A stretch of DNA of 64,000 nt, from NCBI RefSeq assembly GCF_019688735.1, contig NZ_JAIFYA010000002.1:558001-622000 (forward strand). The letters are read 5' to 3'. A model generated the notes under the pieces. That model was not told the origin of the DNA. It did no database searches and was given only the letters and a program-made list of their open reading frames with translations. Source of the stretch: Thermosulfurimonas sp. F29 (GTDB taxonomy: Bacteria; Desulfobacterota; Thermodesulfobacteria; Thermodesulfobacteriales; Thermodesulfobacteriaceae). Each line of letters opens with the position of its first letter. The stretch's first letter is position 1. The translations under genes were made by a program, and so were the position numbers. Shown here in pieces: positions 22,178 to 31,384 of the stretch.

Positions 22178-22330
22178 CCCACGGCTAAAGCCGTGGGATT
22201 CTGAGGGATGCAACCCTCAGAACCTCAGCCGCGGATGGGACGCGACTGAGGGATTGACGGCGTGGATTCCACGAGTGCTTGTCCCACTCGCAGGTTACCC
22301 ACGCCAGGCCGGCCTCCGGCCCGTCCCCGT
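22160..22330 (-). ncRNA. Candidate TnpB omega-RNA at the tnpB 3' end
   Basis: In this family the guide RNA scaffold overlaps the 3' end of tnpB and the element end, and the guide is the flanking DNA just past the hairpin. Here that would make the phosphoesterase sequence just left of 22178 the guide. Inferred from family knowledge and hairpin position; boundaries are approximate. Confidence 0.4.
22178..22197. repeat. Left-end hairpin of the IS200/IS605 element
   Basis: CCCACGGCT and AGCCGTGGG (9 bp) with a 2-base loop. It lies inside the last codons of tnpB and forms the 3' part of a presumed TnpB omega-RNA. Confidence 0.85.
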
Positions 22331-23486
22331 AGTCCGGGGTTTCCCCTAGAATGTTCCACGCCGCATTCACATCGGCGTGCATTCTTCCATGTTCGGGACA
22401 AATCACCACGGAACGCTTCGGACGCTTGACCTCCTCCCCGCACACGGCGCACCTTTCCGAAGTTCCGGTCTCGTCCACCGGCTCAACTTTTATCCCGCGC
22501 CGTTCACAGGCGTCCTTGAGATACCTGATCGCCTTGAGAAAGGCCCAGAAATTGTGAACCTTGATGTTGTTTCTGCCGAACCGCATCTCGCTCCGGCATT
22601 CCTTGGGGTAGCCGACCTTGAGGAGTCCCACATCATGTGCCTTGAGAATTTCGGCTACAGTTCTGGCAAAAGCCCGCAAAGCGTGCTCCAGTCGAGCCGT
22701 GCGTTTGCGATAAAGCTTCTTGAGTCGTCGGCTTGTCTTGAGCCCCTGGGACGCTAGGAGCGATTGCAGTTCGGCTATGCGCCTGGTCCAGTATCGGTAA
22801 TCCTTCCACAGGTTGCGAGCCGAGAAAACGATTCCCACAGGAACCCCTTCAATGACCAGCGCCGCTGTGCGTTTCGCGCCCAAATCTATAGCGGCGCGCC
22901 GTTTCCCTGTTTTTTTCACCGTTCGGATTTCGGTCTGTATTCGTGCATACCAGCGATCCCTTGCGGCGTCGTACTTGATTTCGCAGGTCGTGCGTTTGCC
23001 TCGAAAACGCATGGTTCCCTTGTAGAGCACGGATAACCGATCCCCCGGACGCTTTCTCATATCCGCAGGCAATGTCAGGTGAAACCAATCGCCGTCCACA
23101 GCATACGCGCGTGCGGATTTCACGGGAATCCAGTCGGAAAACCTTTTTCCCGTGGTCCGGTCCTTGCGGTAGCGAGGAGGCGATGGTTTCTCGGAGATCT
23201 TCCCCATCGCATAAAGAGCTTTCAGCCTGAAAAACGAAGTCCACGCCTGGCGCAGTTTTTTGAGAACTTCCTGGGCGATATCCGAGGGAAGCGCTTGGTA
23301 TTCCGGTGTGTTCTTCATGAGCGAACACAGTTCACCGTAGGAGGGAACCTTCTCCCCTTTGAAGAACCGCTGGCGACAGACGAAGTTCGCCGCGTTCCAG
23401 AGAGCACTAACCCGATCGCCGATTTCTTTGAGAATGCGCCTTTCCCGCCGTGTGGGAAGCAAGCGAACGGTTTCCGTCCTTGTCAT
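22185..23486 (-). CDS. tnpB: TnpB (OrfB) RNA-guided endonuclease
   Basis: A 433-residue OrfB/TnpB. It has an N-terminal helical domain, the OrfB_IS605 core, RuvC-I 'AAIDLGAKRTAAL' (Asp 201), a zinc finger 'CAVCGEE...VICPEHG' (346-367) and RuvC-III 'HADVNAAWNIL' (Asp 372). At the RuvC-II position, where many TnpB proteins have a catalytic Glu in 'VEDL', this one reads 'LLKVGYPKE' (288-296), so the Glu is absent or moved. TnpB uses an omega-RNA from its own 3' end to cut the donor-joint and aid retention of the element. Whether this copy is active depends on the rearranged acidic residue. Confidence 0.9.
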   Translation of the reverse strand: MTRTETVRLLPTRRERRILKEIGDRVSALWNAANFVCRQRFFKGEKVPSYGELCSLMKNTPEYQALPSDIAQEVLKKLRQAWTSFFRLKALYAMGKISEKPSPPRYRKDRTTGKRFSDWIPVKSARAYAVDGDWFHLTLPADMRKRPGDRLSVLYKGTMRFRGKRTTCEIKYDAARDRWYARIQTEIRTVKKTGKRRAAIDLGAKRTAALVIEGVPVGIVFSARNLWKDYRYWTRRIAELQSLLASQGLKTSRRLKKLYRKRTARLEHALRAFARTVAEILKAHDVGLLKVGYPKECRSEMRFGRNNIKVHNFWAFLKAIRYLKDACERRGIKVEPVDETGTSERCAVCGEEVKRPKRSVVICPEHGRMHADVNAAWNILGETPDYGDGPEAGLAWVTCEWDKHSWNPRRQSLSRVPSAAEVLRVASLRIPRL

Positions 23487-23515
23487 CTTGCTTTAAGCGT
23501 AGTATGTTTTTGTTT

Positions 23516-23914
23516 ATGAGTCAAGACTATAAACGGGCTTACACTTCAATGTATTTGTTGAACTACCATTTCGTTTGGATACCGAGGCGGCGCAGGCCGG
23601 TATTGGTGGGGAGAGTGGCTGAAAGGCTTAAAGAACTGATTCTGGAAAAGGCCGGGGAGCTCAAGCTTGAGGTTCTTGAGCTTGCGATACAGCCTGATCA
23701 TGTGCACCTTTTCGTATCTGCGCCTCCGAATCTAGCACCGAACCAGATTATGTTTCGCATCAAGGGATATACCGCGCGGGTGCTGCGAAGGGAGTTTCCC
23801 TGGCTGAGGAAACTCCCCAGCATGTGGACCAGAGCGTATTTCGTGTCTACAGCGGGAAACGTGTCCTCAGAAACCATCAGGCGCTACATCGAAGCCCAGA
23901 GTACATCGGCCTAG
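23516..23914 (+). CDS. tnpA: TnpA, IS200/IS605 HUH (Y1) transposase
   Basis: ATG 23516 (MSQDYKRAYTS...) gives 132 residues, the usual length for the family. The HUH motif is 'PDHVHLFV' near residue 63 and the nucleophilic Tyr is in 'SSETIRRYIEAQ' near 126. It cuts and joins single-stranded DNA at the hairpin ends of the element. Divergent from tnpB with a 29-base gap that must hold both promoters. It looks intact, so it could also mobilise related ends, such as those proposed for the IscB element nearby. Confidence 0.92.
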   Translation: MSQDYKRAYTSMYLLNYHFVWIPRRRRPVLVGRVAERLKELILEKAGELKLEVLELAIQPDHVHLFVSAPPNLAPNQIMFRIKGYTARVLRREFPWLRKLPSMWTRAYFVSTAGNVSSETIRRYIEAQSTSA

Positions 23915-25845: not shown

Positions 25846-26139
25846 CTAGCAAGCAGGATGGTTCCCTCGCGCATTCCGTAACAAGACTTGCACTTTGTTG
25901 ATTCCGTACAACAAGCGCGAATACGTCAAGTAAAACGCCGCTTCCCCCAAACGAGCATCATCCTGGAAATCCCGTTCGAACTCCGACATCCACTCCTCAA
26001 CCGTTTTCTGTCGAAACAACTGAAGCACCCGCCTGAGCGTGTCCCGCTTGAGCCTTCTGCTCCAAACATCTACGATGAAAGCAAGATCGTAAAGGTCCCG
26101 ACCGGCCACCCTCTCCTGCAGGGCTTTAATTTTCAACAC
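25846..26139 (-). pseudogene. C-terminal remnant of an AbiEii-type nucleotidyltransferase toxin
   Basis: Ninety-seven residues starting 'LKIKALQERVAGRDLYDLAFIVD' match the middle/C-terminal part of AbiEii toxins, where 'K..A...R...RDLYD' follows the nucleotidyltransferase core. The N-terminal catalytic part ('GGTAL...RSEDLDF') is missing. The fragment begins exactly at the end of the iscB gene (7-base overlap), so the IscB element most likely inserted here or replaced the 5' half. Confidence 0.75.
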
Positions 26140-27545
26140 ATTTCTGCCGAGAATTCTCCGCCCAGACCGCAGGTTGGGTGGAGAGGAATCGGTGTAATAC
26201 CTTCGTTATACATGAGTCTTTTGCACCTCTTGATGCTGATGTAGTTTTTTCCCGTCATTTTTTCTAGATCTGGAGAGTAAATGCTTCGACCATTGTGCTG
26301 CGCAGCCCTGGCTACAAACACCACGCCGTTTGCACGATAAATGTTCCCTCCCCGGACGTCCGTCTGTATCCGTCGCACCAACTTTACCCCCAGACTAACT
26401 TCCACCATACCTACATGCTTGGGGTGTTTTTTCCTATACTCGTTCCAGCTCGGCTCCTTCTGATCCGTCCTCCGGTTCCGATTGCGAGCCACGATTTTTC
26501 CGTCCACCCGATACAGCCTGTCTCGAACCGCATGAACCACCGCTCTTCGGTGACGCCTGAACTGCGCTAGACGTTTTTCGGGAATTTCTTCCGGCTCGAT
26601 GTCCGCTCCAAGGATCGCTTCGAACGCCCCGATGAGAGGATCGTCCGGTCTCCTGCGAACCGCCTTCCAAGCCGAAATTGCTTTTAATTCCAGTTTCCTA
26701 AGCAAACCGCACACCGTGTTGACCACACCCAGCGCCCGCTGGTCCATTCCCTTCAGAGGGATGGGAAGCAATCCGTGGTGAACCAGACGGTGACAGGCTC
26801 CGCAAAGCGGTATCAGGTTCTCAGGAAGATCCGTTCCGGTTTGCTTGCGCGGTCTCAAATGGTGAATTTCCACGTCCTCCGTCCGTCCGCAGACCGCGCA
26901 TCGCCCGCCCCATACCCGTCTGGTGTACTCTTTCGGGCTTTCGCCCTTGAACTTTCCCCTCGGTGAAACCTGATAGTCCTCCGGCCTTTCCGGTTTCCCC
27001 CAGGTGATAGCCCGCACGTCGAGCCGGAAGTCCACGAGCACCGGCTCAAGATCGGCCCAGGGAAGACTCCACCACTTCCGAATCTTTCCTATCAGGGAAA
27101 GAACCGTCCTCACTCCGTGGTCCACCGTGGGAGACCGTTTCCCCTTCTCGAAAACCGTTCTCCGAACCTTGTTGAATCGTGGGAGCCCCTTTCGCTCTCG
27201 TTTTTTTCTTTCCAGATACCGCCTTCGTCTCCGATGCATCCTCCTCTCCTCGATGAGCTTCCTGATCTCGGGCGTTCTCGCCTGGAGGATTCCCCGATCA
27301 ATGAGATCCACACCGTCAAAGAGGGCGTAACGAACTCTCTTAAATCCAGGCCAGACAACCAGCGTGAACCTCCTCGGCACGGTCTTCGCCGGATCGAACT
27401 CCCGGTCCAGAAACTGGACGCACAGAGGTTTGAACCCGCCGCCGATGAGCTTCGCCCGTCCGCGACGAACCAGCCGAAACACCATGTCCACCTTCCTCGT
27501 GGGGTGCCCTGGATTGCCATGCTTGTCTTTCGTGGCAATCAGCAT
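26133..27545 (-). CDS. iscB: IscB-like HNH nuclease (RRXRR family) with degenerate RuvC site
   Basis: The 470-residue protein follows the IscB plan: PLMP-like N-terminus ('NPGHPTRKVDMVFRLVRRGRAKL', residues 11-33), RuvC-I, an Arg-rich bridge helix ('RRMHRRRRRYLERKK', 101-115), RuvC-II with 'PEDYQV', HNH ('CAVCGR...IHHL...ENLIPLCGACHRLVHH', 216-257) and a C-terminal region with the typical 'RNRNRRTDQ..WNEYRKKHP'. The HNH residues are all present. The RuvC-I motif, normally G-I-D-P-G, reads V-V-W-P-G (61-68), so the catalytic Asp is Trp. The RuvC-II Glu position appears to be Val, and no clear RuvC-III H-x-x-D is seen. IscB is RNA-guided; this copy should at most nick one strand with HNH. Confidence 0.85.
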   Translation of the reverse strand: MLIATKDKHGNPGHPTRKVDMVFRLVRRGRAKLIGGGFKPLCVQFLDREFDPAKTVPRRFTLVVWPGFKRVRYALFDGVDLIDRGILQARTPEIRKLIEERRMHRRRRRYLERKKRERKGLPRFNKVRRTVFEKGKRSPTVDHGVRTVLSLIGKIRKWWSLPWADLEPVLVDFRLDVRAITWGKPERPEDYQVSPRGKFKGESPKEYTRRVWGGRCAVCGRTEDVEIHHLRPRKQTGTDLPENLIPLCGACHRLVHHGLLPIPLKGMDQRALGVVNTVCGLLRKLELKAISAWKAVRRRPDDPLIGAFEAILGADIEPEEIPEKRLAQFRRHRRAVVHAVRDRLYRVDGKIVARNRNRRTDQKEPSWNEYRKKHPKHVGMVEVSLGVKLVRRIQTDVRGGNIYRANGVVFVARAAQHNGRSIYSPDLEKMTGKNYISIKRCKRLMYNEGITPIPLHPTCGLGGEFSAEMC

Positions 27546-27806
27546 GTCTTACCTCCCGCCCTTAAGGACGGCCCATAGATCGGGCGTCCCGTGTGGGACG
27601 GTTCGGCTCCCTGGAGGAGACGAGGGCGTTCGGTTCTTGCGGAGGGACGGGCCTCCTCCCGCCGGGAGCCTGGGAGCTTCAGCCCCGCGGTCGCCCATGT
27701 CCCTCGCCTCCTCATCGGTCACCCACCTCCCTCACCGGAAAGCCCATCGAAGCGTCCCGCCCCGCTCCGATAAGCCCCCACTAGACCGCTCCGCGGTTAG
27801 TGGGGG
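26135..27806. mobile_element. Candidate IscB-type IS200/IS605-like element (non-autonomous)
   Basis: It comprises iscB, its 5' structured non-coding region and a 14-bp hairpin at 27775-27806. At the other side a weaker hairpin (TCCGCCCA/TGGGTGGA, 26156-26183) lies within the last codons of iscB, and the element abuts a beheaded AbiEii gene. No transposase is inside; the TnpA at 23516 is a possible helper. Ends are inferred. Confidence 0.5.
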
Positions 27807-27825
27807 TGGGTGACAAAAACTTCAC
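27546..27825 (-). ncRNA. Candidate IscB omega-RNA
   Basis: About 280 bases upstream of iscB contain no plausible gene but are GC-rich and full of self-complementary runs, including the 14-bp hairpin at 27775-27806. In known IscB systems the omega-RNA is encoded just upstream of iscB and the guide lies at its 5' end, outside the element. By analogy the guide here would be bases just right of 27806 read on the minus strand. Confidence 0.55.
27775..27806. repeat. Strong hairpin at the presumed 5' end of the IscB element
   Basis: CCCCCACTA, a bulged G, ACCGC, loop TCC, GCGGT, TAGTGGGGG: a 14-bp stem with one bulge. Such hairpins mark IS200/IS605-type ends. Confidence 0.75.
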
Positions 27826-27931
27826 CCTTAAGCCGATCGTCAAGCGGCGTTATCGTCTTTGGTGACTTTTCCACTTTTGCGTTATTATTTCGACTTTTTG
27901 GTTAAAGTTTGGTTAAAATATCGGTTAACAG

Positions 27932-29050
27932 TTAGTAGCCCATAGAAGGCAAAGCATTCCGAATTGCTCGATACGTTTCATCTTCGTTTTTATCTTCGGA
28001 AAGGAGTTTTGTTAGTTTTCTCAATTTAACAGGAAGCGCTTGTAATTCCCGGTTCACTGTTTCTTCATTTAAAGGAAACTGAGGAAGGTAATGTTTGAGC
28101 AGGTAAAACACTAATAGAGCCTGGGCCACGTCACGTTTGCGTTTAAGGGCGGGTCTGTCAGTCTGACGCGCAACCCAGAGTTTATGTAGGACGAATGCTC
28201 TAGGGTCCGGTACTACTAGAGGAACGGGGAGGCCATCGTGTCCTATAGCAATTGCATAGACTTTAGGACAAGAAACGATCCATCGAGTCCCTTTTGTTTC
28301 CAACGCCAGCATATCTTCGGGAAAAGGAGAAATTCGTAAATGTGGATTTTGTATTTCGGTTAAAGTTTTAGGGGTGGGTTTGAGGAGTTCCACCCAGAAA
28401 CCGTCTTTATTGACTGCTCGGTAAGGCGTATCGCCAGGCCGAAAAGAAGGGTCGGCGCGTTTCAGTAATCCCAGGAAGCCTTCCTTGGAAAGCCCGGCGA
28501 TCTGCAGACACGAGCGGGCATCCCATAGCACATCAAGATCTCTTGTCGCTAAAAGTCCAGAAGACACAAAAACTCCTGCCATGGCCTCATACGCATATAT
28601 GGCATTAGTTCCTAAAATCATGGTGCGTTTACGCAAATCTCGCATCAAAAACATTTCTCGTGCGATTTTGGCAACTACCAAGGGAACACGGTTTAAATGT
28701 AATGCCTTACACATTCGTCGTACTATATCCGCTTTTTGCATGAAGGCTTCTCGCTTGCGTCGAAATTCTTCTTTCTTTCGGTGCCAATTCTCAAAAATTT
28801 TTTCGGTCTCGGGGGAACGCGGCCCTAGTGATTTTGTTGCCCCGCGTGAATCAAGCACACGGATTAAGTAATCGCGCCCTCTTACATTTTTCCAGTAAAG
28901 TCCTCCCCGGTACGACAGCCCTTCATGATACAGTTCGCAAAAAGCCTCCCATAACTGTTGAGCATCTATGAAAATACGCCTCTGCTCTTCATTGAACTCC
29001 AAGACTTTTCCTTTAAAACTCATGGCATTTTCATTTTTAATGGAAAACAT
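27932..29050 (-). CDS. GSU2403-type nucleotidyltransferase-fold protein
   Basis: A 372-residue protein. Its middle ('RTMILGTNAIYAYEAMAGVFVSSGLLATRDLDVLWDAR', split over residues 140-178) matches the nucleotidyltransferase-fold family (PF12281-like). The G-T-N at the usual G-G/S position and D-x-D of 'RDLDVLW' serve as metal ligands. The C-terminal half has 'PDPRAFVLHKLWVARQTDRPALKRKRDVAQA', also typical. These genes are frequent in mobile or defence regions and are probably TA-like, but the activity is untested. The start could also be Met 10 (29023); neither start has a clear Shine-Dalgarno site. Confidence 0.8.
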   Translation of the reverse strand: MFSIKNENAMSFKGKVLEFNEEQRRIFIDAQQLWEAFCELYHEGLSYRGGLYWKNVRGRDYLIRVLDSRGATKSLGPRSPETEKIFENWHRKKEEFRRKREAFMQKADIVRRMCKALHLNRVPLVVAKIAREMFLMRDLRKRTMILGTNAIYAYEAMAGVFVSSGLLATRDLDVLWDARSCLQIAGLSKEGFLGLLKRADPSFRPGDTPYRAVNKDGFWVELLKPTPKTLTEIQNPHLRISPFPEDMLALETKGTRWIVSCPKVYAIAIGHDGLPVPLVVPDPRAFVLHKLWVARQTDRPALKRKRDVAQALLVFYLLKHYLPQFPLNEETVNRELQALPVKLRKLTKLLSEDKNEDETYRAIRNALPSMGY

Positions 29051-30529: not shown

Positions 30530-31384
30530 TTAAGGCCCGGGATAACGTATGCGAAAAGTTCTGCTTTTTATTTTCGATTCCCTTTGTTTTTGATCTTGGA
30601 TTTCATCAAGATCGCATTGAAAAAGGGCTATGATACTAGGAACTCTTTCTTCATACCACTTGAACATTTCTTCAATAGATATATTAAGATTCAAGATGTT
30701 GGAATAATCGATCTGCCTAACGATGTTTCTAGCAAATAACAATATATTCTCGATAGGAAAATCTGGGAAAAGTCTTTTGTACTCATCAAGAAGCGAAACC
30801 ATGTCCAGTGCAGAAGTTCCTAGCACATAAATATCAACAATATCTTTGGAACGAGGCGGCAGTCGTTCCACCATACTGGTATGAAATGCCCATAGCTTTT
30901 TAACACCAATAGCTACAACGGGATCCACCCTAAAAACAAAATTCCCCTTGGATTCCATCATATCCATATCCAGAAAAGTGCCTTTTTTTATCTCTTTAGG
31001 AAAAAGACCAGGAAATGGATCTGAAACAAAATCTACAATGATGCTTTCGTTGCTCGAAGAGAATTCAACTATACGTCTTGACACAAAAGACGATCCCTTC
31101 TCTTGCACTGCAAATTCGGTAATAGCACAATCCAGACTGTGATGTAGTTCTCGTTCCCACATTACAATGATTTCTTTGATCTCATCAGGTGACAGGTCAA
31201 AAAAGAAATCTAGATCTTCGGAAAACCGGTGGGTAAAACCATGAAATAGAGTAAGGGCTGTCCCTCCAGTTAATTTCCACTCAACAATATGCTGAGCCAG
31301 CCTCCACGAAACTTTCAACACCTCCTTCTGTAAACGAGCAATTGCTTGTTGTCTTACCTGTGATTCTGCTGAGACTCGATCCAT
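30530..31384 (-). CDS. AbiEii-type nucleotidyltransferase toxin
   Basis: A 284-residue protein with the AbiEii/AbiGii core 'WKLTGGTALTLFHGFTHRFSEDLDFFF' (split over residues 36-62): G-G-T-A plus S-E-D-L-D. Later 'VDFVSDPFP' supplies the third acidic residue, and 'VAIGVKKLWAFHTSMVERLPPRSKDIVDIYVL' fits the family's K...R...KD-x-x-D motif. AbiEii enzymes transfer nucleotides to tRNA acceptor ends and act as toxins or phage-abortive factors. Full length, unlike the remnant at 25846. The segment just upstream (31385-31513) has no gene. Confidence 0.88.
   Translation of the reverse strand: MDRVSAESQVRQQAIARLQKEVLKVSWRLAQHIVEWKLTGGTALTLFHGFTHRFSEDLDFFFDLSPDEIKEIIVMWERELHHSLDCAITEFAVQEKGSSFVSRRIVEFSSSNESIIVDFVSDPFPGLFPKEIKKGTFLDMDMMESKGNFVFRVDPVVAIGVKKLWAFHTSMVERLPPRSKDIVDIYVLGTSALDMVSLLDEYKRLFPDFPIENILLFARNIVRQIDYSNILNLNISIEEMFKWYEERVPSIIALFQCDLDEIQDQKQRESKIKSRTFRIRYPGP

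What the first reader, a model, noticed from the sequence alone, without database searches (positions are those of the whole stretch)
26133..27825. IscB-like nuclease with lost RuvC residues but an intact HNH domain
The protein keeps the whole IscB plan, but the RuvC-I Asp is Trp (V-V-W-P-G in place of G-I-D-P-G) and the RuvC-II Glu position appears to be Val, while all HNH residues remain. If expressed with its omega-RNA it would be a natural single-strand nicking or binding protein. IshB proteins lack RuvC altogether; a full-length copy with point loss is different and could be either decay or a new use.
Basis: partly seen in the sequence, partly recalled or inferred. Interest (0 to 1): 0.8.

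Follow-up and report, generated by a model that had tools for sequence, protein, structure and literature searches.

The report
RuvC-dead IscB with conserved guide RNA
A bacterial relative of the Cas9 ancestor IscB has lost one of its two DNA-cutting sites but keeps the other, together with its own well-preserved guide RNA, so it may be a natural RNA-guided enzyme that nicks only one DNA strand.

Summary
ORF 26133-27545(-), 470 aa, is a full-length IscB with RuvC-I Asp→Trp65 and RuvC-II Glu→Val171. All HNH and zinc residues remain. Full-length relatives (Acidithiobacillus, Ammonifex, a viral-collection contig; 37-40% identity) all keep intact RuvC, so the loss is specific to this lineage. No closer relative was found in 41 genomes of its class or 395 of its phylum. 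The rest of the protein evolves about as fast as in intact relatives, so it does not look relaxed throughout. Upstream (27546-27814) lies an omega-RNA. A covariance model built only from the intact relatives' RNAs finds it at E 4e-7; all 27 modelled pairs are kept, 7 through lineage-specific two-sided changes. Trp from Asp needs three base changes, which argues against very recent decay. Most likely reading: an RNA-guided target-strand (HNH-only) nickase, the mirror image of IsrB, in an IS605-type element whose right end looks degenerate. Recent decay is the main rival. Expression, target and activity are untested. Novelty: new variant of a known kind.

The parts
26133..27545 (-). RuvC-dead, HNH-intact IscB CDS, 470 aa
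   Evidence: full-length alignment to relatives
27351..27353 (-). codon 65 TGG: Trp in place of the RuvC-I Asp (D61 of OgeuIscB)
   Evidence: catalytic residues from PMC9640706
27033..27035 (-). codon 171 GTG: Val in place of the RuvC-II Glu (E193 of OgeuIscB)
26640..26651 (-). site of the 7-aa in-frame deletion that removes the RuvC-III His; D302 at 26640-26642 may be the surviving Asp
   Evidence: alignment-dependent
26778..26900 (-). HNH/zinc region, residues 216-256, all catalytic and zinc-ligand residues kept
27546..27814 (-). omega-RNA scaffold (269 nt up to the start codon; true 3' end not determined)
   Evidence: alignment with relatives, fold z -3.7
27718..27814 (-). 5' domain of the omega-RNA: stem P1 enclosing hairpins 1 and 2 and a variable third hairpin
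   Evidence: covariance model from relatives only: 37.5 bits, E 3.8e-7; fold z -6.5; 27/27 pairs kept
27815..27834 (-). predicted guide, GGCTTAAGGGTGAAGTTTTT
   Evidence: position 5' of the scaffold as in IscB; no second match with fewer than 3 mismatches in the genome
26144..26186 (-). probable element right end: imperfect hairpin (26156-26186) plus tail AATTCTCGGCAG; now read through by the last ~15-20 codons of the ORF
   Evidence: comparison with the right ends of relatives and with the IS605 element next door
25846..26139 (-). C-terminal fragment of an AbiEii-type nucleotidyltransferase beginning at the element's right end (flank, not part of the system)

Best explanation
A full-length IscB of the HEARO/IscB kind that has permanently lost its RuvC active site and is retained as an omega-RNA-guided, HNH-only DNA nickase. 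Proposed mechanism: the omega-RNA from 27546-27814, with its guide at 27815-27834, is bound through the PLMP, bridge-helix and C-terminal parts. The complex opens DNA next to a target-adjacent motif. HNH cuts only the guide-complementary strand, leaving a nick and a bound R-loop instead of a double-strand break. Shown: loss of the RuvC-I Asp, RuvC-II Glu and RuvC-III His; intact HNH residues; retained RNA-binding regions; structurally maintained omega-RNA. Inferred: expression, RNA binding, target-strand nicking (from OgeuIscB and Cas9), and the biological role, which is most likely low-toxicity retention, homing by nick repair, or local repression by an immobilised element.
For: RuvC is lost at three separate motifs while every HNH and zinc residue is kept. 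The open frame is 470 codons; about 3.5% of random substitutions would make a stop, so an unconstrained copy would survive 0.05 substitutions/site with a chance near 9%, whereas Asp to Trp needs three changes in one codon. Outside the RuvC cores the ML branch is 0.98 against 0.86 for an intact relative; in the cores it is 1.62 against 0.69. The segment after RuvC-III that holds RRHRRA..HA.RDR keeps 14 of 15 sites conserved in relatives, HNH 17 of 23. A covariance model from the four intact relatives' RNAs finds the window RNA at the predicted place, E 3.8e-7, with no non-standard pair. All 27 pairs are kept, 7 by two-sided changes found only here. OgeuIscB catalytic residues are D61, E193, H340, D343, and HNH is proposed to cut the target strand (PMC9640706). 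RuvC-inactivated (D61A) IscB is used in base editors (PMC13180657).
Against: It is a singleton: no orthologue shares the Trp, so selection after the loss is not measured. The faster RuvC-core rate is significant in one alignment (p 0.001) and not in another (p 0.26-0.6). The compensatory RNA changes cannot be dated relative to the RuvC loss, and the omega-RNA's first hairpin may also serve as a transposon end. The right end is degenerate, the stop codon has moved, and a gene fragment lies beside it. The guide has no convincing second target in the genome. No expression data exist.
Confidence: 0.45

Rival explanations
1. Ordinary decay: a selfish IscB element landed in this genome, lost mobility and then RuvC function, and is drifting toward a pseudogene that happens still to be open.
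For: Single copy in one genome of its class; all relatives intact; degenerate right end and shifted stop codon; rearranged flank with a truncated AbiEii gene.
Against: Losses at three RuvC motifs, one needing three base changes in a codon, imply a long time without RuvC, yet there is no stop or frameshift. HNH, zinc and RNA-binding residues are kept. All 27 RNA pairs are kept with lineage-specific compensation. The non-RuvC rate is not raised.
Confidence: 0.3
2. RNA-guided DNA-binding protein or transcription regulator that works without cutting, analogous to the TnpB-derived TldR repressors; HNH remains but is not the selected activity.
For: RuvC loss as in TldR (PMC13418256, seen as an abstract); RNA and RNA-binding parts maintained; two genomic near-matches to the guide with 3 mismatches, none in the reversed control.
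Against: If cutting were irrelevant HNH should have drifted like RuvC; all its catalytic and zinc residues are intact. The two near-matches are weak; one lies in a long open frame.
Confidence: 0.15
3. RuvC is still active through rearranged residues (D302, E167 or D172 taking the place of the lost ones), so the protein still makes double-strand breaks.
For: D302 aligns with the RuvC-III Asp in some alignments and starts a predicted helix; E167 lies four residues before Val171; a rearranged catalytic Glu is known in TnpB (own knowledge).
Against: The RuvC-I Asp, which holds a metal, is Trp with no acidic neighbour on that strand, and the RuvC-III His is deleted. The model was too poor to place residues (mean pLDDT 47).
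Confidence: 0.05

Closest known systems
IscB (OgeuIscB and HEARO-type), HNH+RuvC omega-RNA-guided endonuclease
   Same: Domain order PLMP-RuvC-I-bridge helix-RuvC-II-HNH-RuvC-III-C-terminal domain; best PDB sequence matches are IscB/OgeuIscB; upstream omega-RNA starting GUCA with the P1/hairpin plan of Rfam HEARO, which matches one relative below threshold (22.5 bits).
   Different: RuvC-I Asp, RuvC-II Glu and RuvC-III His are gone; below the NCBIfam IscB cut-off.
IsrB (OMEGA nickase)
   Same: A natural one-nuclease member guided by an omega-RNA (PMC9581776).
   Different: IsrB keeps RuvC and lacks HNH, and nicks the non-target strand; here HNH is kept and RuvC is dead, so the opposite strand would be nicked.
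IshB
   Same: HNH without a working RuvC (own knowledge).
   Different: IshB lacks the RuvC domain altogether; here the whole RuvC region is present with point losses and one small deletion.
TldR (nuclease-dead TnpB repressors)
   Same: Loss of RuvC catalysis with a retained guide RNA (PMC13418256, abstract).
   Different: TldR derives from TnpB, has no second nuclease, and its guides have known host targets; none is shown here.
RuvC-intact relatives in Acidithiobacillus caldus/ferrivorans, Ammonifex thiophilus and IMG/VR 3300005573_000069
   Same: Full-length 37-40% identity, PGHPT motif, RRHRRA..HA.RDR segment, same omega-RNA plan, IS605-like right end.
   Different: All keep complete RuvC and HNH active sites.

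Membership tests
IscB | RRXRR/PLMP N-terminus with split RuvC and inserted HNH in one ~400-550 aa protein | tested here: met
   Pfam RRXRR and HNH above cut-off; full-length alignment
IscB | RuvC catalytic residues D, E, H, D | tested here: not met
   D to W65, E to V171, H deleted, D uncertain
IscB | HNH catalytic residues | tested here: met
   H228-H229, N243, H252 and four Cys kept
IscB | omega-RNA encoded directly upstream, guide at its 5' end | tested here: met
   RNA structure: model from relatives hits 27718-27814, E 3.8e-7; the guide itself is placed by position only
IscB | NCBIfam guided_IscB curated score | tested here: not met
   105 bits, cut-off 175; the RuvC-intact A. caldus relative also misses it, 129 bits
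IscB | RNA-guided DNA cleavage | not testable with these tools
   needs biochemistry
IshB | HNH protein without a RuvC domain | tested here: not met
   RuvC regions present and alignable over the full length
IsrB | RuvC present, HNH absent | tested here: not met
   HNH present, RuvC residues lost
HEARO RNA (RF02033) | match at the Rfam gathering score | tested here: not met
   no HEARO match to the window RNA even with the permissive search; one relative 22.5 bits against 83
TldR-like repressor | guide matching a host promoter | tested here: inconclusive
   only two 3-mismatch sites in the genome

The most novel reading that the evidence does not exclude
A natural target-strand nickase produced by point loss of RuvC in a full-length IscB, kept under selection together with its omega-RNA after the element lost mobility: a third way, beside IsrB and IshB, in which nature uses a single-nuclease OMEGA effector.
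Probability: 0.4. Interest if true: 0.8.

Novelty: new variant of a known kind. Interest (0 to 1): 0.62.

Why it matters
IscB nickases are made in the laboratory by mutating the RuvC Asp. A natural version would show that evolution also favours nicking over double-strand breaks for some element or host function, and would give a compact natural nickase scaffold. It would also be a parallel, on the Cas9 side, to nuclease-dead TnpB derivatives, and would let one ask what selects for a nick rather than a break.

Tried and rejected
Closer relatives: single-protein scans of genome contigs and viral contigs found none; 60 relatives, 395 phylum genomes and all 41 class genomes gave only the window copy; two more viral scans returned only the same contig. 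Guide target in viral contigs: none; in own genome: only two 3-mismatch sites. Extra omega-RNA copies in the genome: BLAST found none; the whole-genome model search missed even the known copy, so it says nothing. Rfam HEARO on the window RNA: no match. The structure prediction was too poor to use (pLDDT 47) and was not searched. The domain-rate contrast depends on the alignment of RuvC-III (p 0.001, not significant), so I do not rest the case on it. Empty-site comparison failed because the neighbouring gene is absent from the 40 other class genomes. A frameshift or assembly error as the cause of the RuvC changes was set aside: all changes are in frame and spread over three motifs. Literature: the held library has almost nothing on IshB and I found no report of natural RuvC-dead IscB in it; Altae-Tran 2021 is not held.

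Full report
What is there. The minus strand at 26133-27545 encodes a 470-residue protein with an unbroken frame. Pfam finds RRXRR and HNH above their cut-offs, and NCBIfam's IscB model matches it below its curated score. It is the only full-length such gene in a 2.35-Mb genome. The best solved-structure matches by sequence are IscB and OgeuIscB.

Relatives. Protein search of plasmids gave a full-length relative on Acidithiobacillus caldus megaplasmids. A DNA pattern for the shared RRHRR...HA.R.R segment gave Ammonifex thiophilus, an Acidithiobacillus-like MAG and an A. ferrivorans copy split by a transposase insertion. A four-sequence alignment found one more in IMG/VR. Identities to the window protein are 37-40% over nearly the full length. 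Every one of these relatives has RuvC-I Asp, RuvC-II Glu, RuvC-III His and Asp, and a complete HNH. The 60 nearest genomes, 395 of the phylum and all 41 of the class gave no other copy.

The losses. OgeuIscB uses D61, E193, H340 and D343 in RuvC and H247 in HNH (PMC9640706). In the window protein the first is Trp65 and the second Val171. A seven-residue in-frame gap removes the third. The fourth may survive as D302 if the gap is placed at LGLEKxH, or be Glu if it is placed later. Without the RuvC-I Asp and the His, RuvC catalysis should be dead whichever is right. HNH keeps H228-H229, N243, H252 and its four cysteines.

Decay or use. Four lines bear on this. First, time: about 3.5% of random substitutions in this ORF create a stop, so an unconstrained copy would be open at 5% divergence with a chance near 9% and at 10% with less than 1%. 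Asp to Trp needs all three bases of the codon to change. This argues that RuvC has been dead for a long time while the frame stayed constrained. Multi-base mutation or recombination would weaken the argument. Second, rate: on trees fitted to RuvC cores and the rest separately, the window branch is 1.62 against 0.69 for an intact relative in the cores, and 0.98 against 0.86 elsewhere. The first contrast is not significant by site counts in this alignment, although it was in another. The second shows no general relaxation. Third, the omega-RNA, described next. Fourth, against: the right end, stop codon and flank look worn, as described below.

The omega-RNA. The 269 bases upstream align with the upstream regions of all relatives, including the 3' block AGGGA..C..ACCG-hairpin-GCC..GATC. 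The 5' 97 bases fold into a stem P1 enclosing two hairpins and a variable third one, z -6.5 for the 100-nt stretch, as do the relatives'. I built a covariance model from the four RuvC-intact relatives only. It found the window RNA at exactly 27718-27814, 37.5 bits, E 3.8e-7, with no non-standard pair, and nothing else in 64 kb. On the joint alignment 98.5% of cells pair and 16 of 27 pairs have two-sided changes. Sliding the partners drops pairing to 32-43%. That alignment was fitted to the model, so the counts lean towards the structure. The window RNA itself keeps 27 of 27 pairs, 7 of them by two-sided changes seen in no relative. Its first hairpin is about 12-16 nt longer than in relatives and still paired. 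Rfam's HEARO family, the earlier name for this RNA (PMC9755519), matches one relative below threshold with the same start and first hairpin.

The element. The relatives end in a perfect or near-perfect hairpin plus a tail such as ACTTCCCGGCGG; the Y1-TnpA/TnpB element at about 22.1-24.0 kb in this window ends CTTCCCGGCGC after a hairpin. The window copy has an imperfect hairpin at 26156-26186 and the tail AATTCTCGGCAG. The ORF now runs through it, which explains its extra C-terminal residues. So this was probably an IS605-type IscB element that may no longer move (inference). The flanking AbiEii fragment starts at its right edge.

How it most likely works. HNH of IscB is proposed to cut the guide-complementary strand, as in Cas9 (PMC9640706), and RuvC-inactivated IscB is used in base editors (PMC13180657). 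A protein with this residue set, guide RNA and RNA-binding parts should therefore bind and nick the target strand. IsrB, which lacks HNH, does the opposite (PMC9581776). I put 0.45 on a retained HNH nickase, 0.15 on a non-cutting binder, 0.3 on recent decay. The guide (27815-27834) has no perfect second match in the genome; two sites with three mismatches are the best, and one of these lies in a long open frame. No target can be named.

Standing. By plan it is an IscB, but a defining catalytic feature fails, so I file it as a RuvC-dead variant rather than as a member in full standing. It is not IshB, since the RuvC regions are present, and not IsrB. I found no report of a natural RuvC-dead IscB in the held library, but the founding paper is not held, so novelty is stated with that limit.

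Noticed in passing
window 22185-23914: An IS605-type element: Y1 transposase ORF 23450-23914(+) (PF01797 E 3e-38) divergent from a TnpB 22185-23486(-), about 2.2 kb from the IscB element and with a similar end tail. It might mobilise the IscB element in trans.
   Followed up: partly
window 22185-23486: The TnpB's RuvC-I Asp (AIDLG) and RuvC-III Asp (HADVNAA) are present, but the RuvC-II Glu position reads KVGYPKE, perhaps a rearranged active site.
   Followed up: no
window 25846-26139 and 30530-31384: Two AbiEii-type nucleotidyltransferase genes near the IscB: a C-terminal fragment at its right edge and a full-length one upstream, not similar to each other by BLASTP.
   Followed up: partly
window 27932-29050: Nucleotidyltransferase (NTP_transf_8) gene directly upstream, absent from the 40 other genomes of its class searched; with variable GC around it this looks like an accessory region.
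   Followed up: partly
L032 4351-6897: The A. ferrivorans IscB is split by a ~1.1-kb transposase insertion near the position of residue 290 of the A. caldus protein.
   Followed up: no
L003, L004: The A. caldus relative sits on megaplasmids that also carry gyrA, gyrB and recJ homologues.
   Followed up: no
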